A stretch of 64,000 nucleotides of DNA from Micromonospora tulbaghiae. Its GTDB lineage: Bacteria; Actinomycetota; Actinomycetes; Mycobacteriales; Micromonosporaceae. The stretch is taken from positions 815,860-879,859 of the forward strand of contig NZ_FMCQ01000001.1 of the NCBI RefSeq assembly GCF_900091605.1. The letters run 5' to 3'. Position numbers and translations under genes: made by a program. The notes beneath the pieces are model-generated. The model was not told the DNA's origin and did not search any database. It saw only the letters and a program-made list of their open reading frames with translations. Positions 2,669-19,374 of the stretch are shown piece by piece. The stretch's first letter is position 1, and each line of letters starts with the position of its first letter.

Positions 2669-3080
2669 GACGTCGCCGATTCCGGCCGTGGCGCGCCCGC
2701 TCGCCCGATGCGCGCTAGGCTGACGACGCGGGGTACCGATGACTGATCGCCACCCCTTGCTTCTCCCACGGTTTCCCAGCCGCGATGACTGAGTCGAGCG
2801 CTGCCGTGCAGATTCCCTTGGAGCACCACGTGCCCGACAACACGTTCGCCCTGAATCCCTTCCGCGTGGAAGGGCTCGGGGCCACCGACGACGAGCGCAA
2901 TCCGATCGCGGACGTCAGCGCCGAATCCATGACCCGCCTGCGGAGCCCGTTCACTGCGGCGCACCCCGCTCGCGAGTCGGCCGGCGCGACCGCCCGACGT
3001 TAGGCCGGCACCCGGGCGCGACGGCCGAGGCCGCGCGCACCGGTCGGGTGACGCCACCGCCGGGCGTGCTCGGTCAGTGG
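2669..3080. other. 412-base gap with no secure gene
   Basis: Between the DUF2855 gene and the PAS/GAF gene. A plus-strand frame at 2785-3003 could encode 72 residues (MTESSAAVQIPLEHHVPDN...). Its amino acid composition is fairly normal, but no ribosome binding site or known family is visible, so it is only a possible small protein. No terminator-grade hairpin was found. Confidence 0.4.
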
Positions 3081-4364
3081 TCAGCGCTTGAGGTAGGCGG
3101 CCAGGCCGCCGAGTTCCTCGTTGGCGATGAAGACCGAACGGACGTTGATGATGGCTTCCTCGACGTGGACGGGGCACCCCCACGCCGAGTCGCCCCACGA
3201 GTCGGCGATCTTGATCTCGGCGGGTGCCGTGCAGTCGTCGCTGCCGCCGAGCTGACACCGCTCGGGGCGGGGAGAGGCGGCCTGCGCGGCGGCCGCGGTG
3301 CGCAGCCGGGCGGTGAGTTCCGCGGCTGCGGCGGCGCGCTGTTCGGCCTCGGCCCGTAGCTCCCGCTCCGCCCGCACCACCCGGGCCAGCTCGTCGTGGG
3401 CGGCTCGCGCGCGGGCGTCCGCGGCGGCCTTCGCCTCCTCGATGTGGTGGCGTTCGATGGCCAGGGCGGCGGTGCCGGTGAAGACCCGGGCGAGGGCCAG
3501 GTCGGTGTCCCGCGGGACGCGCGGCGAGCGGTGGTACATGGCGAAGGTGCCGAGCAGGCTGCCGTCACGGGCCAGGATCGGCGTGGACCAGCAGGCGGCG
3601 AGCCCCGCCCGCTCGGCCAGATCGCGGAAGTCGGCCCAGAACGGGTCGGTGGCGATGTCGGTGACGACGACCGGTTCCCGCCGGTGCGCGGCGGTGCCGC
3701 ACGAGCCGACACCTTCCCCGGTGGCGATCCCGTCGATGGCCTCGTTGTAGAAGTCGGGCAGGCTGGGCGCGGCGCCGTGGCGCAGGTGCCGGCCGTCCGC
3801 GTCGGCGAGCAGGACGGAGACGAGGACCTCCTGCGGCGCGAGGTTCTCGATGCAGCGGGCCATCCCGTCGAGCACCTCGGTCAGGGGCGCCTGCCGGGCG
3901 ATCTGCTCCAGCATCGCGCGGTGTTCGGCCATCAGCCGTTGCGCCTGCTTGACCTGCGTGGTCTCCACCCCGATCACCCGGATCCCGGTCACCGTGCCGG
4001 CGGCGTCGCGGCGTGCCTCGTAGGTGAAGTCGAAGAACGCCTCCCGCGCCTGCGATCCGGTGCCCAGCATGATCCGGGCGTCATGGCCGGTGTAGGGCTC
4101 GCCCGTGCGGTAGACCTCGTCCAGCAGGGCGATGAAGCCCTGGCCGTCCAGTTCCGGCATCAACTCGGCGAGCGGGACTCCGGTGCGTGCGCGTTCCCTG
4201 CCGATGGCGGCGAAGAACGCCGGGTTCGCCGCCTCCACCACGTGCGTCGGCCCGGCGAGCGCCGCGAACACGGCGATGGACTGCCCGAACAGCGTCCGTA
4301 GATCCTCGTCGGCGGGCCGCCCGGCGACCGACGAGCTCGCCTGCTGGCCCGGTAGCACCGTCAT
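3081..4364 (-). CDS. PAS/GAF sensor protein with Cys-rich C-terminus
   Basis: The product is about 427 residues: a PAS domain (about 25-150, with a hydrophobic core and a C-terminal cap), a GAF domain (about 160-310, containing the typical GEGVGSCGTAAHRREPVVV segment), a coiled coil (about 310-360) and a C-terminal segment with Cys residues (CQLGG, SDDCTAPAE, WGCPVHVEEAI). There is no histidine kinase, GGDEF or PP2C catalytic domain, so this is a sensor or scaffold rather than a complete signalling enzyme. The ATG at 4364 is preferred over an upstream GTG at 4382 because GGGAGGAAG lies about seven bases before it. Ligand and partner are unknown. It faces away from the cellulase gene. Confidence 0.82.
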   Translation of the reverse strand: MTVLPGQQASSSVAGRPADEDLRTLFGQSIAVFAALAGPTHVVEAANPAFFAAIGRERARTGVPLAELMPELDGQGFIALLDEVYRTGEPYTGHDARIMLGTGSQAREAFFDFTYEARRDAAGTVTGIRVIGVETTQVKQAQRLMAEHRAMLEQIARQAPLTEVLDGMARCIENLAPQEVLVSVLLADADGRHLRHGAAPSLPDFYNEAIDGIATGEGVGSCGTAAHRREPVVVTDIATDPFWADFRDLAERAGLAACWSTPILARDGSLLGTFAMYHRSPRVPRDTDLALARVFTGTAALAIERHHIEEAKAAADARARAAHDELARVVRAERELRAEAEQRAAAAAELTARLRTAAAAQAASPRPERCQLGGSDDCTAPAEIKIADSWGDSAWGCPVHVEEAIINVRSVFIANEELGGLAAYLKR

Positions 4365-4434
4365 GCCTGGTCTTCCTCCCACGCCTGCTTCGTCGACCGT
4401 TGCAGATTACGGGGCAGTGGCCGACGTTCACATC

Positions 4435-4463
4435 TTGGCATCGACGCCTGCCTCCGCTACCGT
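4435..4463 (+). promoter_or_regulatory. Putative cellulase promoter
   Basis: TTGGCA at 4435-4440 and TACCGT at 4458-4463 are separated by 17 bases. The predicted transcription start falls inside the palindrome at 4466-4479, which is what would be expected for a repressed promoter. The call is by eye. Confidence 0.5.
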
Positions 4464-4465
4464 CG

Positions 4466-4479
4466 TGGGAACGCTCCCA
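4466..4479 (+). promoter_or_regulatory. CebR-type operator
   Basis: TGGGAACGCTCCCA differs at one base from the palindrome TGGGAGCGCTCCCA bound by CebR, the LacI-family cellobiose-responsive repressor of streptomycetes. It lies just downstream of the predicted -10 element and 40 bases before the cellulase start. This suggests induction by cello-oligosaccharides; the regulator itself is not in the window. Confidence 0.75.
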
Positions 4480-4519
4480 TGAACTTAGATACGTCTATGT
4501 GATCAGGAGGAAACACGAC

Positions 4520-5905
4520 GTGGCTATCCTCTCGTCCCGCCGCAGTTCAGCGGCCATCAGCGTGGCCGCGGTCGCGGGGCTCGCCGCGGCCGGCGTCGGT
4601 CTCGCCGTCGGCGGCGCGTCCGCCGGCACCGTGTCCGGATCGCTCTACCGCGACCCGAGTTCGGCGGTCGTCCGCTGGGTCGCAGCCAACCCCGGCGACT
4701 CGCGCGCCGCCGTCATCCGCGACAAGATCGCGAGCCAGCCGCAGGCCCGCTGGTACGCCAACTTCAACCCGTCGACCATCCAGTCCGAGGTCTCCAGCTT
4801 CATCGGCGCCGCCAACTCGGCGCAGCAGATCCCGGTGCTGTCGGTGTACGAGATCACCAACCGGGACTGCGGCGGTGCCAGCGCCGGTGGGGCGCCGGAC
4901 CTCAACCAGTACCAGACCTGGGTGTCCAACTTCGCCCGGGGGCTCGGCAACCAGACCGTCCTGATCATCCTGGAGACCGACTCGCTCGCGCTCCAGACCT
5001 GCCTGAGCACCGGTGAGCTGAACGCCCGCAACCAGGCGCTCACGACGGCGACCCAGACCATCAAGTCGGCGAACCCCAACGCCAAGGTGTACCTCGACGG
5101 CGGCCACTCGACCTGGAACAGCGCCAACGACACGGCCAACCGGCTCCGGGCGGCCGGCGTGCAGTACGCCGACGGCTTCTTCACCAACGTGTCGAACTTC
5201 AACCCCACCTCCAGTGAGGCGAACTTCGGCCGCGCGGTCATCTCCGCGCTCAACGGCATGGGTATCTCCGGCAAGCGCCAGGTCATCGACACCAGCCGCA
5301 ACGGGGGAGCCGCCGGGGACTGGTGCGCCGACGACAACACCGACCGGCGCATCGGGCAGTACCCGACGACGAACACCGGCGACGCCAACATCGACGCGTA
5401 CCTCTGGGTGAAGCCGCCGGGTGAGGCGGACGGCTGCCGCTACACGGCCGGTTCGTTCCAGCCGGACCTGGCCTTCAGCCTCGCGAACGGCGCGCCCAAC
5501 CCGCCCACCACCGCGCCGCCGACGACCAACCCGCCGACGACCGCGCCGCCCACCACCGCGCCGCCGACGACTGCGCCGCCCACCACGGCCCCGCCGACCA
5601 CGCCGCCGCCGACCGGTAACGGCTGCTCCGCGTCGGTCGCGATCAACCAGTGGAACGGCGGCTTCACCGCGAGCGTGAACGTCACCGCGGGCTCCGCGGC
5701 CATCAACGGCTGGACCGTGACCGTCGCGCTGCCCGGCGGCGCCGCGATCACCAGCACCTGGAACGCCCAGGCCAGCGGCACCAGCGGCACCGTCCGGTTC
5801 ACGAACGTGGGCTACAACGGGCAGGTCGGCGCCGGCCAGACGACCAACTTCGGCTTCCAGGGCACCGGCACCGGCCAGGGCGCGACCGTGACCTGCGCCG
5901 CCTGA
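4520..5905 (+). CDS. Secreted GH6 cellulase with C-terminal CBM2
   Basis: The product is 461 residues. It has a Sec-type signal peptide with twin arginines (residues 1-36), a GH6 catalytic domain (about 40-320), a proline/threonine linker of PTTAPPTT-like repeats (about 325-365) and a family 2 cellulose-binding module (about 368-461, starting GCSASV). GH6 landmarks are YEITNRDC (110-117), ILETDSLAL (151-159) and PGEADGC near 300. The second motif normally reads EPD; here it is ETD, with the acidic residues kept. The enzyme should hydrolyse beta-1,4-glucan outside the cell by inversion. The GTG start is supported by CAGGAGG nine bases upstream. A CebR-type operator precedes it. Confidence 0.93.
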   Translation: MAILSSRRSSAAISVAAVAGLAAAGVGLAVGGASAGTVSGSLYRDPSSAVVRWVAANPGDSRAAVIRDKIASQPQARWYANFNPSTIQSEVSSFIGAANSAQQIPVLSVYEITNRDCGGASAGGAPDLNQYQTWVSNFARGLGNQTVLIILETDSLALQTCLSTGELNARNQALTTATQTIKSANPNAKVYLDGGHSTWNSANDTANRLRAAGVQYADGFFTNVSNFNPTSSEANFGRAVISALNGMGISGKRQVIDTSRNGGAAGDWCADDNTDRRIGQYPTTNTGDANIDAYLWVKPPGEADGCRYTAGSFQPDLAFSLANGAPNPPTTAPPTTNPPTTAPPTTAPPTTAPPTTAPPTTPPPTGNGCSASVAINQWNGGFTASVNVTAGSAAINGWTVTVALPGGAAITSTWNAQASGTSGTVRFTNVGYNGQVGAGQTTNFGFQGTGTGQGATVTCAA

Positions 5906-5919
5906 CCGGACCCGACGCC

Positions 5920-5958
5920 GGGGCCCGGCGCGGAGGAACGCCCTCCGCGCCGGGCCCC
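5920..5958 (+). terminator. Hairpin terminator after the cellulase
   Basis: A perfect 17-base-pair stem (5920-5936 with 5942-5958) and a five-base loop lie between the convergent cellulase and oxidoreductase genes. It has no T-run, as is usual in high-GC actinobacteria, and may serve both strands. Confidence 0.8.
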
Positions 5959-6633
5959 TCACTTCCCCGCTGCTGTCCGCAACGGAGTCACGGACCGCCG
6001 CGCCCTCCTCAGGTTGAGCGCCAGCTCCTCGCGGTTCTGGTGCGCGTGGCGGATCCACGCCGGCTGGCCCGGGCCGGTGCGCCAGGACTCGCTCAGCGGA
6101 CTGTTGTCCACAGTGTCGAAGCCGAGCCGGTCGTACAGCCGCGTCACCAGTTCGACCGCCTCCGGGTGGTCGCTGGAGACGGACAGCGCCAGCCGGTCGG
6201 GCGCGCCGGCGGGCCGGGCCGAGGTGAGCAGCCGGGGTGCCTGGATGTGGGTGAACGCCTTGGCGACCTTCGACGTGGGGAGCTGTTCCTGGCGCAGCTC
6301 GTGGACCGTCTTCTCACCCGAGTCGAGGACCGGGATGTTCCCGTCCCGCCAGACCATGTAGTTGTTCGTGTCCAGCACGACCTTGCCGGCCAGCTCCTCG
6401 ACCGGCATGTCGTTCACGACCTTGAGCGGCACGGCGACGATCGCGAAGTCGCCCGCTGCCGCCGCCTCCGCGGCGTACGCCGCCCGCGCCGACGGCCCGA
6501 GTTCGGCCACGAGGTCGGTCAGCGTGTGCGGCCCCCGGGAGTTCGCGATCACGACCGCGTATCCGGCCGCTACCGCCGCGCGGGCGAGCTGGCTGCCGAC
6601 CTCACCCGCGCCGATGATGCCGATGGTTGTCAT
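5959..6633 (-). CDS. NADP oxidoreductase, F420-dependent NADP reductase-like
   Basis: The 224-residue protein begins MTTIGIIGAGEVGSQLARA, a Rossmann dinucleotide-binding motif, followed by NSRG at the position that usually recognises the NADP phosphate and by VLDTNNY. This matches the family of coenzyme F420-dependent NADP oxidoreductase-like proteins (Pfam F420_oxidored), many members of which have other or unknown substrates. It is the last gene of a minus-strand set with the SnoaL-like gene and the SDR, and could be part of the TetR-controlled unit starting at 7790. Confidence 0.88.
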   Translation of the reverse strand: MTTIGIIGAGEVGSQLARAAVAAGYAVVIANSRGPHTLTDLVAELGPSARAAYAAEAAAAGDFAIVAVPLKVVNDMPVEELAGKVVLDTNNYMVWRDGNIPVLDSGEKTVHELRQEQLPTSKVAKAFTHIQAPRLLTSARPAGAPDRLALSVSSDHPEAVELVTRLYDRLGFDTVDNSPLSESWRTGPGQPAWIRHAHQNREELALNLRRARRSVTPLRTAAGK

Positions 6634-7906: not shown

Positions 7907-8542
7907 ATGGGCGCTGAGACTCCGACCCCGGGACGGCCGCGGACCTTCGACGAGCAGACGGTCCTCGACCGGGCCGCCGAGGTCTTCTGGCAGCAGGGCT
8001 ACGAGGGCGCGTCGCTGAGCTCACTCACCAAGGCGATGGGCATCAACCGGCCGAGCCTGTACGCCGCGTTCGGCAGCAAGGAAGAGCTGTTCAAGCGGGC
8101 CTTCGACCGCTACCACGAAACCAACCTCGCGAACGCGCGCGCCGCCCTCGAACAACCGACCGCGTACGCCGCGATCGAAGCCTTCCTGCGCGCCAGCGCC
8201 GACAACCTGACCGCGGGCGGCCACCCCGCCGGCTGCCTCTCCATCCAGGGCGGCCTGGCCTGCTCCCCGGAGAACGCCCGCATCTCCGAGATCCTCGCCG
8301 CCGGCCGCGCGGCCACCGAGGCCGCGCTCGAAGCGCGGCTGTCCCGCGCGGCGAAGGAGGGGGATCTCCCGGACGGCCTGGACAGCCGGGCGCTCGCCCG
8401 TTTCGTGATGGCGCTCAGCGAGGGGCACGCCGTCCACGCCGCGGCCGGCGCGAGCCGCGAGGACCTTCAAGCCTCCGTCGACGTCGCCATGCGGGCCGTC
8501 GCGGCACTCCACCCCGGTTCCGCGCCGGCGGCGTCCGCGTAG
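7907..8542 (+). CDS. TetR-family transcriptional regulator
   Basis: The 211-residue protein has an N-terminal TetR DNA-binding domain: FDEQTVLDRAAEVFWQQGYEGAS, then the recognition helix region RPSLYAAFGSKEELFKRAF. The C-terminal half is like the TetR_C_16/YbjK-type ligand domain of regulators that often control reductases. It is divergent from the SDR gene, with three operator copies between them. Together these suggest a repressor of its own gene and of the 7790-5959 oxidoreductase set, released by an unknown small molecule. The start at 7907 agrees with a predicted leaderless transcript. Confidence 0.92.
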   Translation: MGAETPTPGRPRTFDEQTVLDRAAEVFWQQGYEGASLSSLTKAMGINRPSLYAAFGSKEELFKRAFDRYHETNLANARAALEQPTAYAAIEAFLRASADNLTAGGHPAGCLSIQGGLACSPENARISEILAAGRAATEAALEARLSRAAKEGDLPDGLDSRALARFVMALSEGHAVHAAAGASREDLQASVDVAMRAVAALHPGSAPAASA

Positions 8543-8570
8543 TCGATGTCGGCCTAAGTTCTGGGTGGAC

Positions 8571-8870
8571 TCAGAAGCGACGGCGGACCCATCTGCCGAT
8601 CATTCCTAGCGTGAACAGCAGCATGAACAGGAATATGCCTGCGCGCCAGTTGTCGCCGCTGGTGTTCCGCCCGGTGTAAGCCGACATCCCGTAGAAGAAA
8701 AAGATCACGTTGGCCGGCAGGACGACCAGTAGCGCCTTGGTGTCGAGGTGCGGCCCGCGCTTCTGCGCAAGGTTGTTGTTGATGTTGATGTTTCCGGTCT
8801 GCGTGGCGTAGACGTTGCCCGAGTTGGTGTTGATGTTCTGGCCCGGGGTTCCCTGCTGACCGGAACTCAT
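8571..8870 (-). CDS. Two-TM protein with motif shared with the CHAT neighbour
   Basis: This 99-residue protein has an N-terminal soluble tail rich in Asn, Gln, Thr and Gly, then two predicted membrane helices (about 45-62 and 76-94) and a basic end (RWVRRRF). Residues 15-30, TNSGNVYATQTGNINI, closely match residues 25-40 of the CHAT protein encoded just upstream (TNSGSVYATQTGDVNI). The two genes overlap by ATGA and should be translated together. The motif resembles bacterial amyloid signalling motifs in its spacing of Gly, Gln and branched residues; this is inference. A role as a membrane effector or receptor activated by the CHAT protein is a hypothesis. No database family is recognised. Confidence 0.75.
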   Translation of the reverse strand: MSSGQQGTPGQNINTNSGNVYATQTGNININNNLAQKRGPHLDTKALLVVLPANVIFFFYGMSAYTGRNTSGDNWRAGIFLFMLLFTLGMIGRWVRRRF

Positions 8871-9601
8871 TGCGACCTCACCATCAGGTGCGGTGCGGCG
8901 CCCGGTCGTGCCGCCAGTTCGGCGATGCGCGGATCGGCGGCGCCGTTCACGCCCAGCATGGCGACCGCCTGCTTGAACGCGTGCGGAACGGTTCGGCCGA
9001 ACCCCAGAGCGGAATAGAAGGAAGCGGCGAATGCGATGGCATCGTCGTCGGGGACGGCCGCGTTCATGCCGACGACGTAGTCGACGTATCGACTGATGGC
9101 CTGTACTGCGGTGGCGGAGTGACAGGCGTTGACGACGACGACCCGAAGGTTGTCGCTCGTGGCGTGGAAGAGCTCCGCGAGAGAGGCGAGGCTGACCGAT
9201 CGGGCGATGCCGTCGTCTGCAGACAGCAGGATCTCCCCGCTGCGGTCACCGTGACCGCTGAAGTGGACGATGTGCGGGCGGTGCTGATTGAGGTACTGAA
9301 GGAGATCCATCGGACGGACCGCCCAGCAGGTGATGAGTTCGAACACCTCCCGGTCACGGGAGAGGCGTAGGCGCTCCGTGATCTGCCGCGCCTCCTCGTC
9401 GATGGCCAGCCGGGCGGTGGCCAGGGGATTCGCGGCGAGCATGAGGATCCGGATCCGGTCGTCGGGAGACGCCGTTTCGTGAATGTTGACGTCGCCGGTC
9501 TGCGTGGCATAGACGGAACCGCTGTTGGTGCTGACGTGCTGGTGCCAGCCGGTGCCGGCGACCGACTTCTTCGCGTCCCTCATGCGCTGCCACTCCATCA
9601 T
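8867..9601 (-). CDS. CHAT-domain (caspase-like) protein
   Basis: The 244-residue product carries a compact CHAT domain from about residue 50: IRILMLAANP at the start, IVHFSGHGD with the catalytic His at about 117 and VVVNACHS with the Cys at 160. This His-Cys dyad is that of clan CD peptidases, so proteolytic activity is plausible. Residues 25-40 (TNSGSVYATQTGDVNI) repeat the motif of the downstream two-TM protein. The ATG at 9601 has no good ribosome binding site; an alternative ATG at 9583 has GGAG nine bases upstream and keeps the motif. The gene is divergent from the kinase/phosphatase operon across a perfect hairpin at 9677-9710. CHAT proteins often act as effectors in bacterial immunity and cell death systems. 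Confidence 0.85.
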   Translation of the reverse strand: MMEWQRMRDAKKSVAGTGWHQHVSTNSGSVYATQTGDVNIHETASPDDRIRILMLAANPLATARLAIDEEARQITERLRLSRDREVFELITCWAVRPMDLLQYLNQHRPHIVHFSGHGDRSGEILLSADDGIARSVSLASLAELFHATSDNLRVVVVNACHSATAVQAISRYVDYVVGMNAAVPDDDAIAFAASFYSALGFGRTVPHAFKQAVAMLGVNGAADPRIAELAARPGAAPHLMVRSQ

Positions 9602-9676
9602 GATCTGTCGACGTCGGATGACGGCGACGTGCCGTCGGCGGCTGTAGGCAGCCCACCGCCCTGGCTGTCCCTACGC

Positions 9677-9710
9677 CTACTACTGACGGACAGCCGTCCG
9701 TCAGTAGTAG
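9677..9710. repeat. Perfect 15-base inverted repeat in the island's divergent promoter region
   Basis: CTACTACTGACGGAC (9677-9691) and its exact reverse complement (9696-9710) are separated by AGCC. The repeat sits between the divergent CHAT gene and the GATase-like gene. It could be an operator for a dimeric regulator controlling both transcripts, or a terminator/insulator. No regulator gene is seen in the island. Confidence 0.85.
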
Positions 9711-9773
9711 CCGTGCGATGCCTGTCAGGTCCGACGCCGACGCCGCCTGCCGGCCCTCATTTGGAGCTATGCC

Positions 9774-10415
9774 ATGGCTGAAGTGCGCCGCAGGATCTAC
9801 GTGACCTCCCCCGGCTACGACGACATCGGGCGGGTGTTGAAGTCGATGGGCGTCGGATACCAGAGCTTTTCGGGCTCGTACGACTGTTCACTCTTGTTCG
9901 TCAACTGCGGCACCCCCGACGCGGTGGATCCCCGCAAGCTGGCCGAATTCGTCGACGCCGGTGGCTGTCTTTACGCGTCCGACCTCGCCGGCGACTTGTT
10001 GGGGCTCGCGTTCCCGGAGCTCTTCGTCTTCGCCGGACGCGGCGGTAGGACTGGCGAGATAGACGCCCTCGTTGTCGATCGGGAACTGCGCGAGATATCC
10101 GGTCGCATGATCAGGATCAGGTTCGACATGGGCAGCTGGAAGGTCCTGCGCCACTGCCAGGGCCACGCCATCATCCGGTCGGCCAACCCGGGCGAGTACG
10201 CCGATCTCCCGATCATGGTTTCGGTTCGCTGTGGTCGCGGGACGATCTTCTACACCTGCTTCCACAACCGGTCCCAGCAGTCGGTCGAGGAACAGCGCAT
10301 CCTCCAGTTGCTGGTGCTCAAACAGATCGGCCTCACCGAGGGTTCCAGTGTTGAGCAGGTCGGCCGATCGCTCGGTGTTCAGGTCAACGAGTTTCGTCGC
10401 GACTTCAGGAGCTGA
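9774..10415 (+). CDS. GATase/ThuA-like protein of unknown function
   Basis: The 213-residue protein alternates strands and helices like a class I glutamine amidotransferase or ThuA fold: RRIYVTSPGYDDIGRVLKSMG, SLLFVNCGTP, KLAEFVDAGGCLYASDLAGD and, near the end, GRGTIFYTCFHN. The GGCLYASD segment is at the place of the usual GG(x)xxG elbow, but a convincing amidotransferase Cys-His-Glu triad is not seen, so it may only bind. It is the first gene of the plus-strand island operon, 22 bases before the first TerY-like gene. The ATG follows GGAG at eight bases. Fold assignment is by eye. Confidence 0.6.
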   Translation: MAEVRRRIYVTSPGYDDIGRVLKSMGVGYQSFSGSYDCSLLFVNCGTPDAVDPRKLAEFVDAGGCLYASDLAGDLLGLAFPELFVFAGRGGRTGEIDALVVDRELREISGRMIRIRFDMGSWKVLRHCQGHAIIRSANPGEYADLPIMVSVRCGRGTIFYTCFHNRSQQSVEEQRILQLLVLKQIGLTEGSSVEQVGRSLGVQVNEFRRDFRS

Positions 10416-10437
10416 TGCGGCGGTGGGGAGGAGGGAG

Positions 10438-11151
10438 ATGTCTCAGGCGGTCGAAGGGCAGGTCGTGATGCCCTTCTACGTCCTCTGCGACGTGTCGGGT
10501 TCGATGTGGGCCGACATGCCGGCACTGAACGCGGGCCTTGCCCAACTGCGTCAGGCCATCATGCGCGACCCGGTGGTCGACGACCTGGCGATGATGAGCG
10601 TCATCGCCTTCGCTGACACGGCTCATACAGTCGTACCGCTGAGCTTCCCCAGCCAGGTGGAGCCGCCGACCCTCGTATCCGGGGGTCTCACCAACTTCGG
10701 ACCGGCCTTCCGCGAGTTTCACCGGGCCTTCGAAGCGGATCGGATCCGCTTGAAGAGCGAAGGGAAACGGATCTTCCGTCCGTGCGTGTTCTTCCTCACC
10801 GACGGTGAGCCGACCGACGGCGATTACGCGCAGGTCTTCGCGTCGCTGCTGCGCTATGACGTGGTCACCAAGCAGGGCAACCCGCGGTATCCGTATGTGA
10901 CCGCCTTCGGCTTCCGCGAGGCAACGGCGGAGACCATGCAGACCCTGACGTATCCGGACTTCGGCGAGAAGCGTGGCCGCTACTTCCTGGCCCGGGAGGG
11001 CGCCGTGGTCTCGGAGATCCTGAGCGCGATCGCCGGCGCGATCGCCACCTCGATCGTCGGCTCAGCGCTGAGTACCGGCAGTGGCAAACCCCAGTACATG
11101 CCGCCCGCGAAGGACTCTGTCGGCGGCATGAAGGGCAGCCTCATCCGCTGA
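10438..11151 (+). CDS. TerY-like von Willebrand factor A protein 1
   Basis: The 237-residue protein is a single vWA domain with an intact MIDAS metal site: DVSGS at 18-22, Thr85 in GGLTNFG and Asp122 in LTDGEPT. It belongs to the TerY-like group, which is encoded with a PP2C phosphatase and a kinase in bacterial Ter-related and conflict-system loci. It is a likely scaffold or phosphorylation target that assembles partner proteins in the cytosol. The ATG at 10438 follows GAGGAGGG. A close paralogue lies immediately downstream; the two are roughly two-thirds identical by eye and differ most at the C-termini. Confidence 0.88.
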   Translation: MSQAVEGQVVMPFYVLCDVSGSMWADMPALNAGLAQLRQAIMRDPVVDDLAMMSVIAFADTAHTVVPLSFPSQVEPPTLVSGGLTNFGPAFREFHRAFEADRIRLKSEGKRIFRPCVFFLTDGEPTDGDYAQVFASLLRYDVVTKQGNPRYPYVTAFGFREATAETMQTLTYPDFGEKRGRYFLAREGAVVSEILSAIAGAIATSIVGSALSTGSGKPQYMPPAKDSVGGMKGSLIR

Positions 11152-11221
11152 GGGGCGGGCTGTCCGTCAGGGAGGAGCAGGCGGGATTCCGCCGTCCCCC
11201 AAGACCATCGGAGGAGAAGCC

Positions 11222-11938
11222 ATGTCCGAGCGGGCCACCGAGGGGCAGGTAGTGATGCCCTTCTACATCGTCTGTGACGTGTCCGGATCCATGTGCGGCG
11301 ACATGGCCGATCTGAACGCAGGAGTCACCGGTCTGCGCCAGGAGATCATGAAGGACCCCGTCGCCGACGACCTGGCGATGCTCAGTGTCATCGCGTTCGA
11401 CGACGCCGCCCGCACCGTGATGCCCCTCAACTTCCCGAGCGCGATGGAACTGCAGACCCTGAACTGTGGTGGCCTGACCAACTACACAGCTGCCTTTCAG
11501 GAGTTCCACCGGGCATTCGAGGCCGATCGGGTCCGGCTGAAGAGCGAAGGCAAGAGGGTCTTCCGTCCGTGCATCTTCTTCCTCACCGACGGCGAGCCGA
11601 CGAGCAGGGACCACCTGCAGGTCTTTCAGCAGCTGCTCGGGTACGACCCGGTCACGAAGCAGGGGAACCCCCGCTACCCGTACGTCACGCCGTTCGGATT
11701 CCGAAGCGCGACGGAGGAGTCGATGAAGGCCCTCGCCTACCCCAACTTCGGTGAGAAGAAGGGACGCTACTTCCTGGCGAAGCAGGGCGCATCGGTCCCG
11801 AGCCTGCTCAAGGCCATCTCCGGAATGATCGGCACCTCGGTGCTCTCCTCCAGCCTGAGCGGCACTGTCGGGACGTTCCAGTACACCCCGCCGGCCACCG
11901 ACGCGTCGCCGGAACTGGAGGGCAGCTTTGTCGACTGA
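11222..11938 (+). CDS. TerY-like von Willebrand factor A protein 2
   Basis: This 238-residue vWA protein is a tandem paralogue of the preceding gene. The MIDAS residues are conserved (DVSGSM, GGLTNYT, LTDGEPTS). Long stretches such as EFHRAFEADR and the TKQGNPRYPYVT region are nearly the same in both, while the last 35 residues have diverged, which suggests separate partners. GGAGGAGAAGCC precedes the ATG. Its stop overlaps the TTG start of the PP2C gene, so the vWA protein and the phosphatase are probably made in fixed proportion. The duplication within the triad is worth noting, since many loci have one TerY. Confidence 0.88.
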   Translation: MSERATEGQVVMPFYIVCDVSGSMCGDMADLNAGVTGLRQEIMKDPVADDLAMLSVIAFDDAARTVMPLNFPSAMELQTLNCGGLTNYTAAFQEFHRAFEADRVRLKSEGKRVFRPCIFFLTDGEPTSRDHLQVFQQLLGYDPVTKQGNPRYPYVTPFGFRSATEESMKALAYPNFGEKKGRYFLAKQGASVPSLLKAISGMIGTSVLSSSLSGTVGTFQYTPPATDASPELEGSFVD

Positions 11939-12815
11939 CGTGTGGCGGCGCACCGAGACGCCCGGGGCGAAGCCGTACGTGATCGGCGATCCGGGCCGTG
12001 CCGCCACCCAGCTGGAACCCGGCCCGCCCACACGCTTCCCGGACTCGGCCGATCATGAGCTGAGCGAGTGTCGAGTGCCAGGCGCACAGGTCCGTGCCGC
12101 CAGCGTACGAGGAATCCTGCACCGCTATCGCAATCAGCCGCGGCAGGACCGCTTCTCCGTGGTCTTCGACCCGCCCACGATGACGCTGGTCGTTACCGTC
12201 TGCGACGGCGTCGGGCAGTTCCCCCTGTCGCAGGAGGCGGCCGGGTTCGCGGCGGCCGACGTACCTCGCGCCTACCTCCGTCACGGTGACTGGCAGATCG
12301 CCGTGACCGAGGTCAACGAGCGTCTCAAGGACTTCGTGGCGACGGCAGGGAGCCGTCCGCACCTCGATCACGTCCCTGATGGCGTCCGGATGGCGACAAC
12401 CCTCGTGGCTGCGGCGATATGTCTCGATCCGGACGCACGGCACGTCTCCGTCGCCTGGACCGACGACTCGTCGGCCTGGTTACTGGCCGACGGCCGGTGG
12501 CGGAATCTGACGCACGATCCGGCCGCCGGCGATGACGACAACGGCTTGCACTCCGGCCGGGTCAGGGCACTGCCGCACGCGGATCCCCGGCTCAGGACGG
12601 CCGAGCACCTCCTCGGCGACGGACCGATCTTCCTCATGACCGATGGCGTCGGCGTCCCGCTCGAGGGCTCCGTGCAGGTGCGTGAGACCCTCGCCGGCTG
12701 GTGGGCCACCGCCCCCGACGTCTTCACCTTCGCTCAGCAGGTCGGCTTCGCGCGGAAAGGCCACATGGACGACCGCACCGTCGTCGGTGTCTGGTTCGAG
12801 GCGAGCCGGCCGTGA
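11928..12815 (+). CDS. PP2C-family protein phosphatase
   Basis: The 295-residue protein shows the metal-binding motifs of PP2C phosphatases: VCDGVGQFP (Asp93, Gly94), RMATTLVAAAI in the middle, FLMTDGVG (Asp239) and DDRTVVGVW (Asp281/282). It should remove phosphate from Ser/Thr of proteins phosphorylated by the kinase encoded next. The start is taken as TTG at 11928, inside the end of the vWA gene, because GGAGGG lies about six bases before it; a GTG at 11940 is the alternative. The stop overlaps the GTG start of the kinase. This is the phosphatase member of a TerY-phosphorylation triad. Confidence 0.87.
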   Translation: MSTDVWRRTETPGAKPYVIGDPGRAATQLEPGPPTRFPDSADHELSECRVPGAQVRAASVRGILHRYRNQPRQDRFSVVFDPPTMTLVVTVCDGVGQFPLSQEAAGFAAADVPRAYLRHGDWQIAVTEVNERLKDFVATAGSRPHLDHVPDGVRMATTLVAAAICLDPDARHVSVAWTDDSSAWLLADGRWRNLTHDPAAGDDDNGLHSGRVRALPHADPRLRTAEHLLGDGPIFLMTDGVGVPLEGSVQVRETLAGWWATAPDVFTFAQQVGFARKGHMDDRTVVGVWFEASRP

Positions 12816-14326
12816 TCCGCATCGACAAACGCCGGTTGGGCACACTCAAGCCGCTCGGCCAGGGCGGGATGGCACAGGTGTATCTCGTCGGTGACCACAT
12901 TCCTGAGGTGCCGGGCAGGCTCGCGTTCAAGGAGCTGTTGCCGTCCGTCGACGCGAAGAACCGTGGACCGATGCTCAGCACGATGCGGCAGGCTGTTGCG
13001 CTGCGTGACGCGATGAGCCCGGCGGAGCAGGCCGAACTCGACCTCCTCACCGTGTGGCCGCTGGCCATGGTTCATGAGAGGGGCACCGACGTGGGCATGC
13101 TCATGCGGTGCCTCCCCGACGACTTCTTCATCGACGCCAATGGCGGACGCCGGGTCTTCGAGTTCCAGTTGCTCGGCGCCGACCCGAGCCAGGCCAAGGC
13201 AAACGGCTTCGACAAGAGCCGCGCGCCGGCCGACAAGGACCTGGTCCGCCTGGCGTTGATGGCCCGCCTCGCGTACGCGATCGAAGTGATTCACCGGCCA
13301 CGCGGTGGCCGGCATCTCGTCTACGGCGACATGAACCTGCGCAACGCCGCCGTGGCCACCGATCCGCCACGCATCCTGCTGATGGACTGCGACGGGGTGG
13401 CCGACGCCGCCGACGCCAACCGGATCCAGCCGCACACACCGTTCTTCGTGCCACCGGAGGTGCGGAAGAAGCAGCAGAAGCTGCAGGACCAGCTCACCGA
13501 CGTCTACAAACTCGCACTGTGCGTGATCCGGGGCCTCGCCACCGGGCGCGGCTCAACCCAGCTGGACGACCCGGCCAGCCCGCTCGTGCCCGCGGGCCTG
13601 CTCGACCAGATCGGCATCGACCTGCTCAACCGCGCGCTCAGCGAAGACCGTGCCCAGCGGCCGACCGCGCAGGAGATCAAGGAATACCTCGTCGGCCGGG
13701 TGCTCGATCTCGCTGACCCACCGACACTGCTGTCCGCGGCGCTCAGCACCGACGTGACGCTGCGTGGTTCCGAGGTCTTCGTCCGCTGGCAGCACAAGGG
13801 CGGGAAATCGGTCCGCATATTCAGCGATGTCAACAACTTCTCCGTCGGGGATCTCGACCCCGACGGCTACCCGAACGGCTATCCGATCAAGCCTCCTACG
13901 GCGTGCGAGATCCGGGTCGCAGTCGTCAACGACCACGGCGAGGACGAAGGACCGGCGGGCCGGCTGCACTACTACGAGATGCCACCGGTGCAGGTCTCGG
14001 TCAACCCGCCGGCAGTCGTGCTGCCGGACCTGCCCGTGATGCGGCTGCCTCGTACACACGCAGAGCTTCCGCCGTATCCACTGCCCGCGGCGGACGTCGT
14101 TCCGCTGCCACCGTTGCACTGGCCGCAGGTGCCGCCGGTTGACCTCGCGCCGGCTGTGCCTGAGGCGCATACATCGAAGCAGCTACGGGACGTGATCGGG
14201 AGCGCCTACCGCGCCGCCGACGTCGGGGTCGACGCCGCGATCCGCGAAATGCTGCGGCGCACAGCACAGAAGCTTCGTGCGGATTCCAAGCAGAAGGCCT
14301 CTGCCAACGCTTTCCCTCCCCCGTGA
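12812..14326 (+). CDS. Divergent protein kinase of TerY-phosphorylation triad
   Basis: The 504-residue protein begins with a kinase domain: glycine loop GQGGMAQVYLV (16-26), Lys40 in LAFKELLP, catalytic loop YGDMNLRN (Asp173, Asn178) in place of HRDxxxxN and DCDG (192-195) in place of DFG. All catalytic residues are present though the motifs are divergent, so activity is likely. After about residue 310 there is a separate region of beta-like sequence (VFVRWQHKGGKSVRIF) and a proline-rich stretch, then a short helical tail. No membrane helix is seen. It overlaps the PP2C gene by GTGA and is followed after 22 bases by the DUF4407 gene. Confidence 0.85.
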   Translation: MIRIDKRRLGTLKPLGQGGMAQVYLVGDHIPEVPGRLAFKELLPSVDAKNRGPMLSTMRQAVALRDAMSPAEQAELDLLTVWPLAMVHERGTDVGMLMRCLPDDFFIDANGGRRVFEFQLLGADPSQAKANGFDKSRAPADKDLVRLALMARLAYAIEVIHRPRGGRHLVYGDMNLRNAAVATDPPRILLMDCDGVADAADANRIQPHTPFFVPPEVRKKQQKLQDQLTDVYKLALCVIRGLATGRGSTQLDDPASPLVPAGLLDQIGIDLLNRALSEDRAQRPTAQEIKEYLVGRVLDLADPPTLLSAALSTDVTLRGSEVFVRWQHKGGKSVRIFSDVNNFSVGDLDPDGYPNGYPIKPPTACEIRVAVVNDHGEDEGPAGRLHYYEMPPVQVSVNPPAVVLPDLPVMRLPRTHAELPPYPLPAADVVPLPPLHWPQVPPVDLAPAVPEAHTSKQLRDVIGSAYRAADVGVDAAIREMLRRTAQKLRADSKQKASANAFPPP

Positions 14327-14348
14327 AGACCTTGAAGGACTGATACAG

Positions 14349-15830
14349 ATGCAGAGATCCAGCACATTTCTGGCTCGCCTCGGCGGTGCCGACCCGGGCG
14401 TGCTCGCCCGCGCCAAGCAGATCAGCCGAGGCGGCGTGGCCAAGGACCAGGCCCGCTTCGTGGCGCTGGGACTCGTGCTGCTCGCCACTGCCGGCCTGGC
14501 CGTGGTGTCGATGGCCTTCGCGATGACCGACGGGCTGCGCGTCGGTGTGGCCGGCGCGGTGCTCATCGGCATCTTCTGGGGCGTGATCATCCTGGTCGTC
14601 GACCGTGCGCTGATCCTCAGTCTGAAGCCGACCGGCAGCAAGTGGTTGCTTTTCTGGATGGTCCTGCCGCGGATTCTCATGGCGGCTCTGCTCGGCCTGG
14701 TCATCTCGACTCCGCTGACGCTGCGCATCTTCGCCGACGAGATCGAACAGCAGATGACCCTCGACAACATCAGGAAGGCGGAGGGTGCGTCGATCGTACT
14801 GGCCGAGGGAAACCGCCAGAAGGAACTGGCGGATCTCAAAGGGGAGATCACGAAGTACGAGCGATACCTCGCCGGCGAGGTCGCAGTCAGCTCACCCGTC
14901 CTGGCCGCCGCCGAGGCGGAGCACAAGCAGGCTACGACCGACTACCAGACGAAACAGGCGAGCGCAGAGAAGGCGTGGGCTGCCTGGCGGTGCGAACTCG
15001 ACGGCGAGCTCTGTGAAGCCGGCAGCGGCAAACGGGGCGACGGCCCGCGCGCCAGTGCGCTGCGGCGGGAGTACGACCGCAAGGAGAAGGACGCGACAGC
15101 GGCCCGGAAGCTCGTCCAGACGAAGCTCGCAGCCCTGGAGAAGGCCCGGGCGGAGTTGCGCCAGGACAGCAGTCGGACGGTCTCCGAGGCGCAGGACGAG
15201 GCCAAACGAGTGCTTCCGGGCCTGCGCCAGCAGCGCGACATCCTTCAAGCTGCGATCCAGAGTGACTTGGACACGAGCAACAAGGAAGCCGCCGACAACA
15301 CCGGGCTGCTGGCACGCCTGGTCGCGTTGGCTCACCTGGGGGACGAGAACGGCTGGGCAAAGCTGGCTCATCTGCTGGTAGCCGCACTGTTCTTCATGAT
15401 CGAGCTACTGCCTGTCGCGATCAAGTCGCTGTCCATTCTCGGTCCACCCAGTGCCTATGACCAGATCGACGAACTCGACACCAAGGAGGTCGTCAAGGCA
15501 GCAGGACGGCAGGAGTACATCGACAAGGATCTGGAGAAGCGCAAGAAGCGGATTGCTGAGGCGGTCCATGACGAGGTCGAAGCGGTGATGCTCGAACTCG
15601 CCACTGACCAGGTCGAAGCGTGGAAGCAGAAGGTGAGACAGATGTCTGTCCAGCCGCCCCGGAGCACCGGCAAGGGCAGTGGCCTCCTCTGGCCCGGCAA
15701 CGGCCAGCCTGCACAGGCCACCGGATCGGGCGCGCCGTCGGCCCGGGCCACCGTCACGGGTCGACGTTCGGCGGCAGCGAGGGTCGCTGCCGCGCTGAAC
15801 CTGCCCCCGTCGGCCAAGCGCCCGTCATGA
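14349..15830 (+). CDS. DUF4407 membrane protein with long coiled coil
   Basis: The 493-residue protein matches the DUF4407 layout: three N-terminal membrane helices (about 37-59, 65-90 and 99-128), a long charged coiled-coil region (about 130-330), a fourth membrane helix (about 338-365) and a cytoplasmic tail rich in Lys and Glu. DUF4407 has no known function. In this operon it could be the membrane anchor or sensor that passes a signal to the kinase and phosphatase, but this is inference. The ATG at 14349 has GAAGGA about ten bases before it. Its stop overlaps the start of the next gene as ATGA. Confidence 0.85.
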   Translation: MQRSSTFLARLGGADPGVLARAKQISRGGVAKDQARFVALGLVLLATAGLAVVSMAFAMTDGLRVGVAGAVLIGIFWGVIILVVDRALILSLKPTGSKWLLFWMVLPRILMAALLGLVISTPLTLRIFADEIEQQMTLDNIRKAEGASIVLAEGNRQKELADLKGEITKYERYLAGEVAVSSPVLAAAEAEHKQATTDYQTKQASAEKAWAAWRCELDGELCEAGSGKRGDGPRASALRREYDRKEKDATAARKLVQTKLAALEKARAELRQDSSRTVSEAQDEAKRVLPGLRQQRDILQAAIQSDLDTSNKEAADNTGLLARLVALAHLGDENGWAKLAHLLVAALFFMIELLPVAIKSLSILGPPSAYDQIDELDTKEVVKAAGRQEYIDKDLEKRKKRIAEAVHDEVEAVMLELATDQVEAWKQKVRQMSVQPPRSTGKGSGLLWPGNGQPAQATGSGAPSARATVTGRRSAAARVAAALNLPPSAKRPS

Positions 15831-17419
15831 GCTCCGTCGGCATGACCCCGTACTGGCCCGCGGAGGAGGACTGGGCCGGCTTCCTGGTGGTGATCGTTCC
15901 CGTCGGTCCGCTGCCGCTGCCCGCCGACGAACTGTGCCGGCAGGTGCAGGCGCAGATCGATGCCGACCCCGTACTCTACGACCTGGTCACGGTGCGGCTC
16001 GCTCCCCGTTTCAAGCTCACACCGGAGTGGGACCGCGCCTTCGTGAGGACTGTGGTCGAGGCAGCGATGCCGGCAGGCCACTTCTTCGCGCCGCGGGGCG
16101 TCATCGGGTTGGTTGTGGTGTCCGACGACCGGGAGAAGCTCCGCAACGTCTTCGACAGCCTGCGTGATCTGCCACCCAGCAGACGTCTGTGGGCGCGGAT
16201 CTTCGGCACCGGCGTACGGGACTCCCGCAACGGCAGCTCGCCGACCGCCGCCGGAAGAGTCGCGAGCACTGTCAACACACTCATCGAGATGTACGACGAG
16301 CAGCCGCAGATCGCCCTGAACGAGTCAACGTTCCTCGATCGGGTCGGCGCTCTGATCGAAGAGGGTTACCTGACCCCTTCGGCGCTCGGTCCCGAGCCGT
16401 CCCCGGCCTCGGCTTCGGCTGCGGGGCCGGCGTCGGCTCGAGAGCGACCGGGGCCGGTCGTCGAGTCGCCGCGCGCCACCGCGTCGGTACCCGTAGTCGA
16501 ACGGCGGCCAAGTGTCGTACCGGCTCCCGACCCGGTGCCGGCGGATGTGCGAACCCCAGCCGCCCGGAATGCGGGGGCGGCGAAGAAGCCCATGCTGGAA
16601 GCGGTGATGTACGACGGCTCCGAGATCGTGGCCGTGGACCAGCGCACACCGATCCAACGCCTGACCGGTCGGCAGCAGACGGATGCCGCCTGCATGGACG
16701 AGCTTCATCGGGGCGGAACGGCGGTCGGGCTCGTCCATCTCGTCTTCGTTCCGGACGACGGTGTCGTGCCCAGGCGGGTGACGAAGCGGCGCAACGAGGT
16801 TGCTCTGGAGCTCGATCAGCTGTTGGATTCCGTCGAGCTCGACGTGGCGAGCGGCCAGCCGAGCCGCATAGCAGTCGAAGTCCTCTCGGCGACCAATCCG
16901 TTGCAGAAACACGGCGTACTGCGCGTTGCGGGCACCATCACCGAAGTCGCGCTGCCAAAGGTGAAGATCGAGTACTTCTCGATGGCCGACATCGTCGAGC
17001 CGCTGCTCGACGCGGCGGGCCGAACCTCACGTGCACTACACGCCCGCGGAGTGCAGGTCGTCAGCCAACACTTCGTCTTCCTGGCTGCGATGAGGTTCCC
17101 GGCCGACGAGGCGACCGAGGACGACTGGGTCAGACTGCTCGACCACGGCCGAGTCACATGGGTCGACTTCAGCCCGACCGGAGGACGTCAGGCGCTGCAC
17201 CCGATGCCGCCGTCGCCGTTCGGCCTGCATGTGCTGACCGACAAGGAGGACGTACTGGCGGTGATCAAGGAGCAGTCCGGAGTCATGTACCGGTATGCGC
17301 AACGGCTACCCACTCAGGCGGCTCCGCGCGACACGTCTGAGCGCGACGGACACGAGCCGATCGCCTCGACGGCCAGTGGCCGGCGCTGGTGGCGATTCGG
17401 CAAACGGCCGGGTGAATGA
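15827..17419 (+). CDS. Unknown 530-residue protein ending the island operon
   Basis: No family is recognised. The N-terminal part (about 1-190) is a soluble domain with alternating hydrophobic strands (FLVVIVPVGPLPL, GVIGLVVVSDD). A low-complexity Pro/Ala/Ser linker (about 195-255) follows. The C-terminal domain (about 265-500) contains GLVHLVFVPDDG, LALHARGVQVVSQHFVFL-like elements and VTWVDFSP, which could be a degraded vWA-like fold, but no metal site is visible. The end is basic (GRRWWRFGKRPGE). It overlaps the DUF4407 gene by ATGA, so the two products may form a complex. It is the last gene before the spo0M remnant. Confidence 0.7.
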   Translation: MSSVGMTPYWPAEEDWAGFLVVIVPVGPLPLPADELCRQVQAQIDADPVLYDLVTVRLAPRFKLTPEWDRAFVRTVVEAAMPAGHFFAPRGVIGLVVVSDDREKLRNVFDSLRDLPPSRRLWARIFGTGVRDSRNGSSPTAAGRVASTVNTLIEMYDEQPQIALNESTFLDRVGALIEEGYLTPSALGPEPSPASASAAGPASARERPGPVVESPRATASVPVVERRPSVVPAPDPVPADVRTPAARNAGAAKKPMLEAVMYDGSEIVAVDQRTPIQRLTGRQQTDAACMDELHRGGTAVGLVHLVFVPDDGVVPRRVTKRRNEVALELDQLLDSVELDVASGQPSRIAVEVLSATNPLQKHGVLRVAGTITEVALPKVKIEYFSMADIVEPLLDAAGRTSRALHARGVQVVSQHFVFLAAMRFPADEATEDDWVRLLDHGRVTWVDFSPTGGRQALHPMPPSPFGLHVLTDKEDVLAVIKEQSGVMYRYAQRLPTQAAPRDTSERDGHEPIASTASGRRWWRFGKRPGE

Positions 17420-17549
17420 GGACCTTCCTCAACACTCGTGCCTGAGAGTCACCCCGTGAACGCACTCAGCTACTTCCCAGGTGGTGTTGGTAGCTTCCCG
17501 GGTTGACGGCCTCCATTATGGACGTCGTTGATCCCGTTGCGACACAAGG

Positions 17550-18197
17550 GATTCGCGTGACGGGCAGCATCTGCACGGCATGACGACGGGCCTGCGCACC
17601 GAGGTGGCGATCCGCGGCGCGGTCGACAAGGGCGACCTGGACCCGGTGTACGTGCACCCGCTGCCGGTGCAGGAGCGCATCCTCGAGGCGTTCGGCCGGC
17701 TCGGCTTCGGGTTCAAGGGCGCGGACCTGGAACGCGGGCACATCTCCGGGCTGCATCAGAGCCTGCCGTTCTACCAGGAGGTCGAGTACTACGCCGCCCC
17801 GCAGTACGCCCACGGCGTCAACGAGGTCGAGCTGACATTCGTCGCGAACGAGCACGGCGTCGACGTGGTGCTGGAGTTCGACAAGCGCGGCGGCCTGTTC
17901 GCCGGAGGCCACGACTCGTACGGCCGCTACCACGCCGATCGCGTCGACTGGGCCGCGCAGGTCGACAACTGGGTCCGCCAGGCCCTCGACGGCTACCCCG
18001 GATACGGGAACGCCGCGTACGGCCACCTCGGCGGGCACCACAAGGAGCACCACCGGGAGCATCACGGCGGCCCGGGCATGGGTGCGGTCGCCGCGGGCGT
18101 GGTCGGTGGTGCCGCCCTGGGCTTCGCCGGGGGCATGGTCGCCGACGAGGTCTTCGACCACTTCGGCGACGACGAGGGCGGCGACGAGGAGGCGTGA
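17550..18197 (+). pseudogene. 5'-truncated spo0M (sporulation-control arrestin-like) remnant
   Basis: The readable frame encodes the C-terminal half of a Spo0M-family protein: GQHLHGMTTGLRTEVAIRGA, then GDLDPVYVHPLP, FYQEVEYYA, NEVELTFVANEHGVDVVLEFDKRGG. The match continues a few codons upstream of the first ATG (17580) to about 17550, after which an in-frame stop (17529) and unrelated sequence appear. The whole N-terminal arrestin-like half is missing. From 17580 a 205-residue product is still possible, ending in a His-rich and acidic tail. Loss of the 5' half next to the island suggests that the island's arrival or a deletion cut the gene. Confidence 0.75.
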
Positions 18198-18200
18198 GCG

Positions 18201-18266
18201 GTGCCCGCCCGTGACCCGTACTTCCGCACCGCCAACGCCCTGGTCGCCCAGACCGGCACCAAGTAG
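18201..18266 (+). CDS. Possible 21-residue peptide
   Basis: A GTG at 18201 follows GGAGG at about eight bases and opens a 21-codon frame (VPARDPYFRTANALVAQTGTK), directly before a strong terminator. It may be a real small protein or a chance frame; nothing similar is recognised. Confidence 0.3.
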   Translation: MPARDPYFRTANALVAQTGTK

Positions 18267-18274
18267 CACCACCG

Positions 18275-18307
18275 CCGGCGGCCCGGGAGACTCCTCCGGG
18301 CCGCCGG
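18275..18307 (+). terminator. Terminator after the spo0M remnant
   Basis: A perfect 12-base-pair stem (18275-18286 with 18296-18307) has a nine-base loop. It would end transcription coming from the island and the spo0M remnant before the CDF gene. Confidence 0.75.
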
Positions 18308-18441
18308 ACGTCGGCTCCAGCCGGTGTGGTTGGTTCCGGACGCTTCCGGGCAAGGGCTCGTCGGCACCTGTGTCGGCGGCCCGCCGGGACGCTGGCACAC
18401 GAACCACCCACACCGCGACGTACGACGAGGGGAAACAGCCG

Positions 18442-19374
18442 ATGGCGGCGGAGGGCAGCACCAAGGCCGTGGTGACGGCGCTGGTCGCGAACCTGGGTAT
18501 CGCGGTGAGCAAGTTCGTGGCCGCCGGCATCACCGGGTCGGCGTCGATGCTTGCCGAGGGCGTGCACTCGGTGGCGGACTCCACGAACCAGGCCCTGCTG
18601 CTGGTCGGCGGCAAGCGCGCCCGCCGCGCCCCGACCGCGCTGCACCCGTTCGGCTACGCCCGCGAGCGCTACGTCTACTCGTTCATCGTCGCGATCATCC
18701 TGTTCACCCTCGGCGGGTTGTACGCCCTCTACGAGGGCTACCACAAGATCAGCGACCCGCACGAGCTGTCCTCGCCGCTGATCGCCGTCGCCGTCCTGCT
18801 GATCGCGATCGCCCTGGAGGGCTTCGCCCTGCGGACCGCGGTGAAGGAGGCGAACAAGGTACGCGGCAAGCGCAGCTGGGTCTCCTTCGTCCGCCACGCC
18901 CGCGCCCCGGAACTGCCGGTGATCCTGCTGGAGGACGCCGGCGCCCTGCTCGGCCTGCTGTTCGCCCTGTCCGGCGTGGGCCTGAGCGTGCTCACCGGGA
19001 ACGCCCTCTTCGACGGCATCGGCACCCTGTGCATCGGCGTCCTGCTGGTCGTCATCGCCGTCGTCCTCGCCGTCGAGACCAAGAGCCTGCTCATCGGCGA
19101 GGCGGCCCTGCCCGAAGAGGTCACCGCGATCCACACCGAACTGGTCTCCACCCCCGGCGTCGACCGGGTCATCCACCTGCGCACCCTGCACCTCGGGCCG
19201 GAGGAACTCCTGGTCGCGGCGAAGATCGCCATCAGCACCTCCGACCGGGGAGCCGACGTCGCCGCCACCATCGACGACGCCGAGGCGCGGATCCGCCGGG
19301 CGCTGCCCACCGCCACGGCCATCTACCTCGAACCCGACATCGATCGGCAGCCCGCCCGCACCAGCGCCACCTGA
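18442..19374 (+). CDS. Cation diffusion facilitator family transporter
   Basis: The 310-residue protein has about six membrane helices and the CDF features: SASMLAEGVHSVADSTNQ in helix 2 with the metal-binding His/Asp set, HPFGYARERY after it, LLEDAGALLG in helix 5 and a cytoplasmic C-terminal alpha-beta domain (EEVTAIHTELVSTPGVDRV). It probably exports Zn, Mn, Fe or a similar divalent metal in exchange for protons; the metal cannot be deduced. The ATG at 18442 lies behind GAGGGGAAACAGCCG. No metal-sensor gene is adjacent. It is flanked by terminators on both sides, so it is a single-gene unit. Confidence 0.93.
   Translation: MAAEGSTKAVVTALVANLGIAVSKFVAAGITGSASMLAEGVHSVADSTNQALLLVGGKRARRAPTALHPFGYARERYVYSFIVAIILFTLGGLYALYEGYHKISDPHELSSPLIAVAVLLIAIALEGFALRTAVKEANKVRGKRSWVSFVRHARAPELPVILLEDAGALLGLLFALSGVGLSVLTGNALFDGIGTLCIGVLLVVIAVVLAVETKSLLIGEAALPEEVTAIHTELVSTPGVDRVIHLRTLHLGPEELLVAAKIAISTSDRGADVAATIDDAEARIRRALPTATAIYLEPDIDRQPARTSAT

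What the first reader, a model, noticed from the sequence alone, without database searches (positions are those of the whole stretch)
17420..18197. spo0M cut at the right edge of the island
The Spo0M match starts abruptly near 17550 in mid-protein, directly after the island. The upstream half of the gene is gone, and an in-frame stop lies at 17529. This marks a recombination junction and shows that the island (or a deletion that came with it) disrupted a sporulation-control gene. The surviving 205-codon frame may still be translated.
Basis: partly seen in the sequence, partly recalled or inferred. Interest (0 to 1): 0.55.

Follow-up and report, generated by a model that had tools for sequence, protein, structure and literature searches.

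The report
Deletion-truncated spare spo0M gene copy
One of four copies of an arrestin-like gene in this bacterium has lost its start and first third through a small deletion of its own, beside but not at the edge of a cleanly inserted 9-kb gene cluster: an ordinary broken gene copy.

Summary
The truncation is real; the stated cause is not. Frame 17580-18197 is residues 115-338 of a 338-residue Spo0M-family protein (Pfam positions 110-213 of 213; the intact copy in the closest relative found, G021, covers 1-213). Removing window 8523-17443 gives an ungapped 196-bp alignment to G021, so the 8.9-kb island is a clean insertion between a TetR gene and the spo0M leader. About 120 bp of native leader survive between island and gene, and the stop at 17529 lies in that leader. 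The gene is broken at 17560/17561 by a separate 375-bp deletion that took the ribosome-binding site, the start and codons 1-108. In a search of 160 genus genomes, no other listed copy lacks the N-terminus. In this genome the missing part hits only three paralogs, which have open frames. The surviving ATG lacks a ribosome-binding site, which 19 of 19 orthologs examined have. It is most likely an untranslated pseudogene; the evidence for relaxed selection is inconclusive. Whether the deletion came with the insertion cannot be settled here. Ordinary; low interest.

The parts
8444..8522 (+). 3' end of the native TetR-family gene (7907-8542), left flank of the insertion
   Evidence: 75 of 79 bases identical to L021 14601-14679 in G021, where it joins the spo0M leader directly; TetR_N Pfam match
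8523..17443 (.). Inserted island, about 8.92 kb (edges ambiguous by about 6 bp; 8517-17437 fits equally): CHAT gene and small partner, gene at 9774, VWA, VWA, PP2C, kinase-like, DUF4407, large unknown protein
   Evidence: no match longer than 93 bp in 40 other genomes; lower GC; gapless empty site in G021; 8 of 9 island genes, reordered, in Paractinoplanes tereljensis L059; domains
17438..17560 (+). Native spo0M upstream/leader block (presumed promoter region); its first 6 bp overlap the ambiguous island edge
   Evidence: matches L021 14674-14796 (82%) and the leaders of the other aligned orthologs; keeps 60 of 63 positions conserved in at least 17 of 19 orthologs
17529..17531 (+). TGA in frame with the surviving ORF; lies in the native leader
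17560..17561 (+). Deletion point: 375 bp present in G021 (L021 14797-15171) are missing here, with the ribosome-binding site, start codon and codons 1-108 (the last in part)
17562..18197 (+). Surviving spo0M sequence, codon 109 to the stop; the ORF 17580-18197 starts at codon 115
18442..19374 (+). Cation efflux (CDF) gene, right-hand neighbour of spo0M
   Evidence: PF01545 E 1.1e-37; downstream of spo0M on the same strand in 2 of 12 ortholog loci examined, L078 (G166) and L079 (G100)

Best explanation
This is an N-terminally truncated copy, most likely a pseudogene, of an accessory Spo0M-family (bacterial arrestin-like) gene. A 375-bp deletion with at most one base of ambiguity at the joint fused the gene's own leader to its codon 109. 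It removed the ribosome-binding site, the start codon and most of the N-terminal lobe. At a different breakpoint, about 120 bp to the left, an 8.9-kb gene cluster was inserted cleanly between the TetR gene and the spo0M leader. Shown: both breakpoints, the gapless empty site in one relative, the relatives with an N-terminus, the absence of the N-terminus elsewhere in this assembly, and three paralogs with open frames. Inferred: that the remnant is not translated into a working protein, that the paralogs cover the function, that the deletion arose by end joining, and that the island was gained here rather than lost precisely in G021.
For: Excising window 8523-17443 (or 8517-17437) gives a gapless 196-bp alignment to G021. 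The native leader survives between island and break. The 375-bp gap aligns cleanly, and none of the five direct-repeat families found in that stretch of G021 has a copy at each end. Shine-Dalgarno pairing is -8.6 to -9.4 kcal/mol in 19 of 19 orthologs examined, against -2.8 before ATG 17580; 66% of 500 random window 20-mers pair at least that well. In the model of the intact protein (best PDB match Spo0M 5cl2) the loss takes five of the seven strands before the inter-lobe helix and leaves strands 115-125 and 128-137 without partners. The lost part hits only three paralogs in this genome.
Against: The surviving frame is open over 205 codons and its net length difference to G021 (57 nt) is a multiple of three. 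The leader is well kept, with no excess of changes (6-9 on this branch, 4-10 on G021's). dN/dS to G021 is 0.28. Relaxed constraint is not established: nonsynonymous/synonymous changes are 8/11 (outgroup G017) or 11/11 (G013), against 24/50 or 17/52 pooled over the three paralogs (Fisher p 0.43 and 0.034); another alignment of the remnant gave 11/11 and 13/11. The faster total rate (19 vs 9, p 0.087; 22 vs 8, p 0.016) is not specific to the broken copy, because the open paralog at C10:692563 shows the same excess (21 vs 10 and 21 vs 9).
Confidence: 0.88

Rival explanations
1. One reading: the island's right edge, or a deletion made by the insertion itself, cut spo0M.
For: The two events lie about 120 bp apart, and each was seen only in this genome: the island DNA among 41 genomes, the deletion among the listed hits of 160.
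Against: The island junction is at 17437-17443 with no gap against the empty site; native leader lies between it and the break. A single cut cannot give this; two pairs of breakpoints are needed.
Confidence: 0.08
2. The short ORF is a working C-lobe-only Spo0M variant, transcribed from the retained leader or by read-through from the island and initiated at ATG 17580.
For: Open frame of 205 codons and in-frame length changes, well-kept leader, no terminator-like site found in 17300-17700, dN/dS 0.28.
Against: No ribosome-binding site before ATG 17580; the cut lies inside the N-lobe, not at a lobe boundary; no other listed hit in 160 genomes is so short.
Confidence: 0.08
3. The missing 375 bp is an assembly error.
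For: Single assembly; reads are not available here.
Against: The contig is 1.12 Mb in a 19-contig assembly; no repeat pair at the deletion ends in G021 that would cause a collapse.
Confidence: 0.03

Closest known systems
Spo0M family (Pfam PF07070), B. subtilis Spo0M, PDB 5cl2
   Same: The intact ortholog in G021 matches the whole Pfam model (1-213) and 5cl2 by sequence (E 3.8e-27) and by predicted fold (Foldseek E 3.2e-20); the remnant matches model positions 110-213.
   Different: The window copy lacks residues 1-108, the ribosome-binding site and the start; the intact G021 protein also has a C-terminal tail of low predicted confidence (residues 264-338).
Bacterial pseudogenes made by small deletions (general knowledge, no call)
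   Same: Loss of start and N-terminus, retained leader, open remnant, paralogs elsewhere.
   Different: Nothing distinctive apart from the gene-cluster insertion next door.

Membership tests
Spo0M family (PF07070), as a complete member | Full Spo0M domain (model positions 1-213) | tested here: not met
   Remnant covers 110-213 only; intact relative covers 1-213
Spo0M family (PF07070), by descent | Significant match and close similarity to an intact copy | tested here: met
   E 2.3e-39; 94% identical to the G021 copy over residues 1-205 (85% in a tblastn that counts the gaps), with shared leader
Spo0M family | Role in sporulation or cell division | not testable with these tools
   Described for Bacillus subtilis (PMC5325327)
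Pseudogene | Loss of translation start signals relative to intact orthologs | tested here: met
Pseudogene | Missing coding part absent from the rest of the genome | tested here: met
   only three paralogs are hit (63, 51, 45% identity); assembly 99.98% complete by its own estimate
Pseudogene | Relaxed selection on the remnant | tested here: inconclusive
   a paralog with an open frame shows the same excess of changes
Pseudogene | No protein product | not testable with these tools
   No expression data here

The most novel reading that the evidence does not exclude
The incoming CHAT/VWA/PP2C/kinase cluster and the accessory Spo0M protein are functionally incompatible or redundant, so that the insertion selected for loss of the N-lobe, or the leftover C-lobe is expressed with the cluster as a modified regulator of the remaining Spo0M paralogs.
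Probability: 0.04. Interest if true: 0.45.

Novelty: new member of a known kind. Interest (0 to 1): 0.15.

Why it matters
It matters little by itself. It corrects the boundaries of the island (about 8.9 kb, clean insertion, empty site found in a relative) and shows that the damage to the next gene has its own breakpoints, so the island should not be credited with cutting a sporulation-control gene. The precise empty site is useful for whoever studies the island.

Tried and rejected
Island edge inside spo0M: rejected. N-terminus moved elsewhere: rejected for this assembly. Short members normal in the family: rejected for the listed hits of 160 genomes (the list was cut after the best matches). 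Repeat-mediated deletion: five direct-repeat families were found in L021 14780-15190, none with a copy at each end of the deletion. Integration repeats: only a 10-bp shared word (GAGGACCTTC at 8459 and 17418), which does not sit at the mapped junctions. Terminator or sigma-70 promoter in 17300-17700: none by simple consensus. Decay of the leader: not seen (window 8 changes at 75 conserved positions under a looser leave-one-out threshold, orthologs 0-11 at 63-68). Faster evolution of the remnant: suggestive, but the paralog at C10:692563 shows the same excess, so it is not counted as evidence. In one search some neighbour frames were set wrongly (reductase, CDF, quinone oxidoreductase); CDF, MarR and quinone oxidoreductase were repeated in the right frames, the reductase was not; of these comparisons only one search is used (the 85% spo0M figure was in the right frame and recurs). 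In the ribosome-binding-site test, for three of the 19 orthologs (L041, L044, L058) and for L053 the start was taken one codon later, at a GTG. PADLOC and NCBIfam scans of the island proteins gave CHAT matches and weak kinase and phosphatase matches only. Papers: 'Spo0M' gave 38 papers, 25 of them seen in the listing; PMC5325327 was read in outline with abstract, introduction and one results section; searches for Micromonospora with arrestin (5 of 29 listed), for island genes and for Spo0M with pseudogene and Actinobacteria (none) gave nothing used.

Full report
What was checked. The frame 17580-18197 encodes 205 residues and matches Pfam Spo0M from model position 110 to the end. The TGA at 17529 is present and in frame. 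A search of 41 genomes (own, 24 of the same genus, 16 of the order) found the closest match in G021: 94% identical over residues 1-205 and part of a longer frame; a tblastn that counts the gaps gives 85%. The genome of the window has four Spo0M-family copies: this one, C8:33099, C10:692905 and C10:641400.

Where the island ends. blastn of window 1-40000 against 20 kb around eight orthologs shows window 1-6064 collinear with G021 at 94%, then a gap, then a native block 17438-17560 (82%), then 17560-18330. Pairwise alignment adds that the tail of the window's TetR gene, 8444-8522, matches L021 14601-14679 (75 of 79 bases). I joined the two flanks in a script and scored all cut pairs in 8505-8574 x 17415-17469. 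The best four (8522/17444 and 8516-8518/17438-17440) score the same, and the one printed is an ungapped 196-bp alignment to G021. The island is therefore about 8,921 bp, inserted between TetR and spo0M without loss of target bases, with a joint ambiguity of about 6 bp. Searched as DNA (window 8600-17400), it has no match longer than 93 bp in the other 40 genomes. Its 1-kb windows have 64-69% GC, against 68-74% in the left flank and 69-74% in the right flank up to 23 kb. G021 has itself lost most of the TetR region and, by eye, most of the CDF gene, so the locus has suffered deletions in both lineages. Insertion in the window's lineage is favoured over precise loss in G021, but one close relative cannot prove it.

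Where the gene is broken. Alignment of window 17425-17640 with L021 14660-15251 shows native leader up to 17560 and then a jump of 375 bp (L021 14797-15171) into the gene; the joint is ambiguous by at most one base. The G021 gene starts at L021 14849 and has 338 codons. The lost segment therefore holds 52 bp of leader with the ribosome-binding site, the start, codons 1-107 and two bases of codon 108. None of the five direct-repeat families found there has a copy at each end. The leader is shared by the 19 orthologs that I aligned (loci L040-L058, those that one search returned besides the own one, from 19 of 159 other genomes); the window keeps 60 of the 63 positions conserved in at least 17 of them.

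How unusual it is. With the junction DNA as query, the only listed match that crosses the junction is the own one; the other listed matches begin at base 118-125 of 323 (capped list). Copies at least 72% identical to the G021 protein are listed in 36 other genomes (37 copies, G021 included), all starting at residue 1 or 2; the next match is at 67%. I take these as the same accessory copy from identity alone; no tree was built. The missing N-terminus finds only three paralogs (63, 51 and 45% identity) in the window's genome, all with open frames.

Is the remnant alive? Upstream of ATG 17580 there is no ribosome-binding site: -2.8 kcal/mol, against -8.6 to -9.4 in 19 of 19 orthologs and a mean of -4.0 for 500 random window 20-mers, 66% of which pair at least as well as the window site. 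The AlphaFold model of the intact protein (14-row alignment, best model mean pLDDT 70, other four 55-63; low at residues 1-9, 63-66 and 264-338) has Spo0M 5cl2 as its best PDB match. The deletion removes strands 16-21, 31-39, 45-60, 67-84 and 89-97 and leaves strands 115-125 and 128-137 without their partners, so it does not respect a lobe boundary. Against death: the frame is open, the net length difference is a multiple of three and dN/dS to G021 is 0.28, and the leader shows no excess of changes. Tests for relaxed constraint are inconclusive: N/S 8/11 or 11/11 against 24/50 or 17/52 in the paralogs (p 0.43 and 0.034), and the higher total rate (19 vs 9, 22 vs 8) is matched by the paralog at C10:692563 (21 vs 10, 21 vs 9). 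A recent deletion fits all of this.

Function. From what I read of PMC5325327 (outline with abstract, introduction, one results section), B. subtilis Spo0M affects sporulation and interacts with cell-division proteins, and homologs occur in non-sporulating bacteria. Nothing here shows a sporulation role in this organism. With three paralogs left, a strong defect is unlikely (inference).

Context. The island carries a CHAT protein, two VWA-like proteins (one below Pfam's cut-off), a PP2C phosphatase and a DUF4407 protein; the label 'kinase-like' for 12701-14326 rests on weak PADLOC and NCBIfam matches. Eight of the nine island genes tested are present in Paractinoplanes tereljensis, where the CHAT pair stands at the other end; the gene at 9774 is not found there. 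A DUF4407-protein relative occurs in 14 of 160 genus genomes counting this one, the best other at 40% identity. The genus is not named by the tools; Micromonospora is a guess from recall.

Verdict. A real but ordinary gene remnant; the island edge did not cut it. Whether the 375-bp deletion accompanied the insertion cannot be settled with one genome per species.

Noticed in passing
8571-17419: The island's gene set recurs in Paractinoplanes tereljensis (L059) with the CHAT gene and its small partner at the opposite end, as if circularly permuted; G130 (L073) has VWA, PP2C, kinase-like, DUF4407 and a weak match to the large protein but no CHAT match, and G003 (L074) and G149 (L075) have more distant versions without matches to the large protein or CHAT.
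   Followed up: partly
8459-8468 and 17418-17427: A 10-bp direct repeat GAGGACCTTC lies in the TetR tail and at the end of the last island gene; it is not at the mapped junctions and may be chance.
   Followed up: partly
L021 14601-14679 and about 16041-16073: G021 has lost about 2.4 kb of the TetR region and most of the CDF gene beside the same spo0M, leaving short remnants (the CDF remnant seen by eye): deletions in both lineages.
   Followed up: partly
10429-11148 and 11222-11935: The two VWA-like genes look like tandem duplicates; the Paractinoplanes cluster also has two.
   Followed up: no
17463-17560: The leader of the accessory spo0M is well conserved across 19 orthologs (blocks around TCAGCTAC, TCAGG, TCCA..ATGGA, CGTTG) without a sigma-70 consensus match, suggesting an unrecognised promoter or operator.
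   Followed up: no
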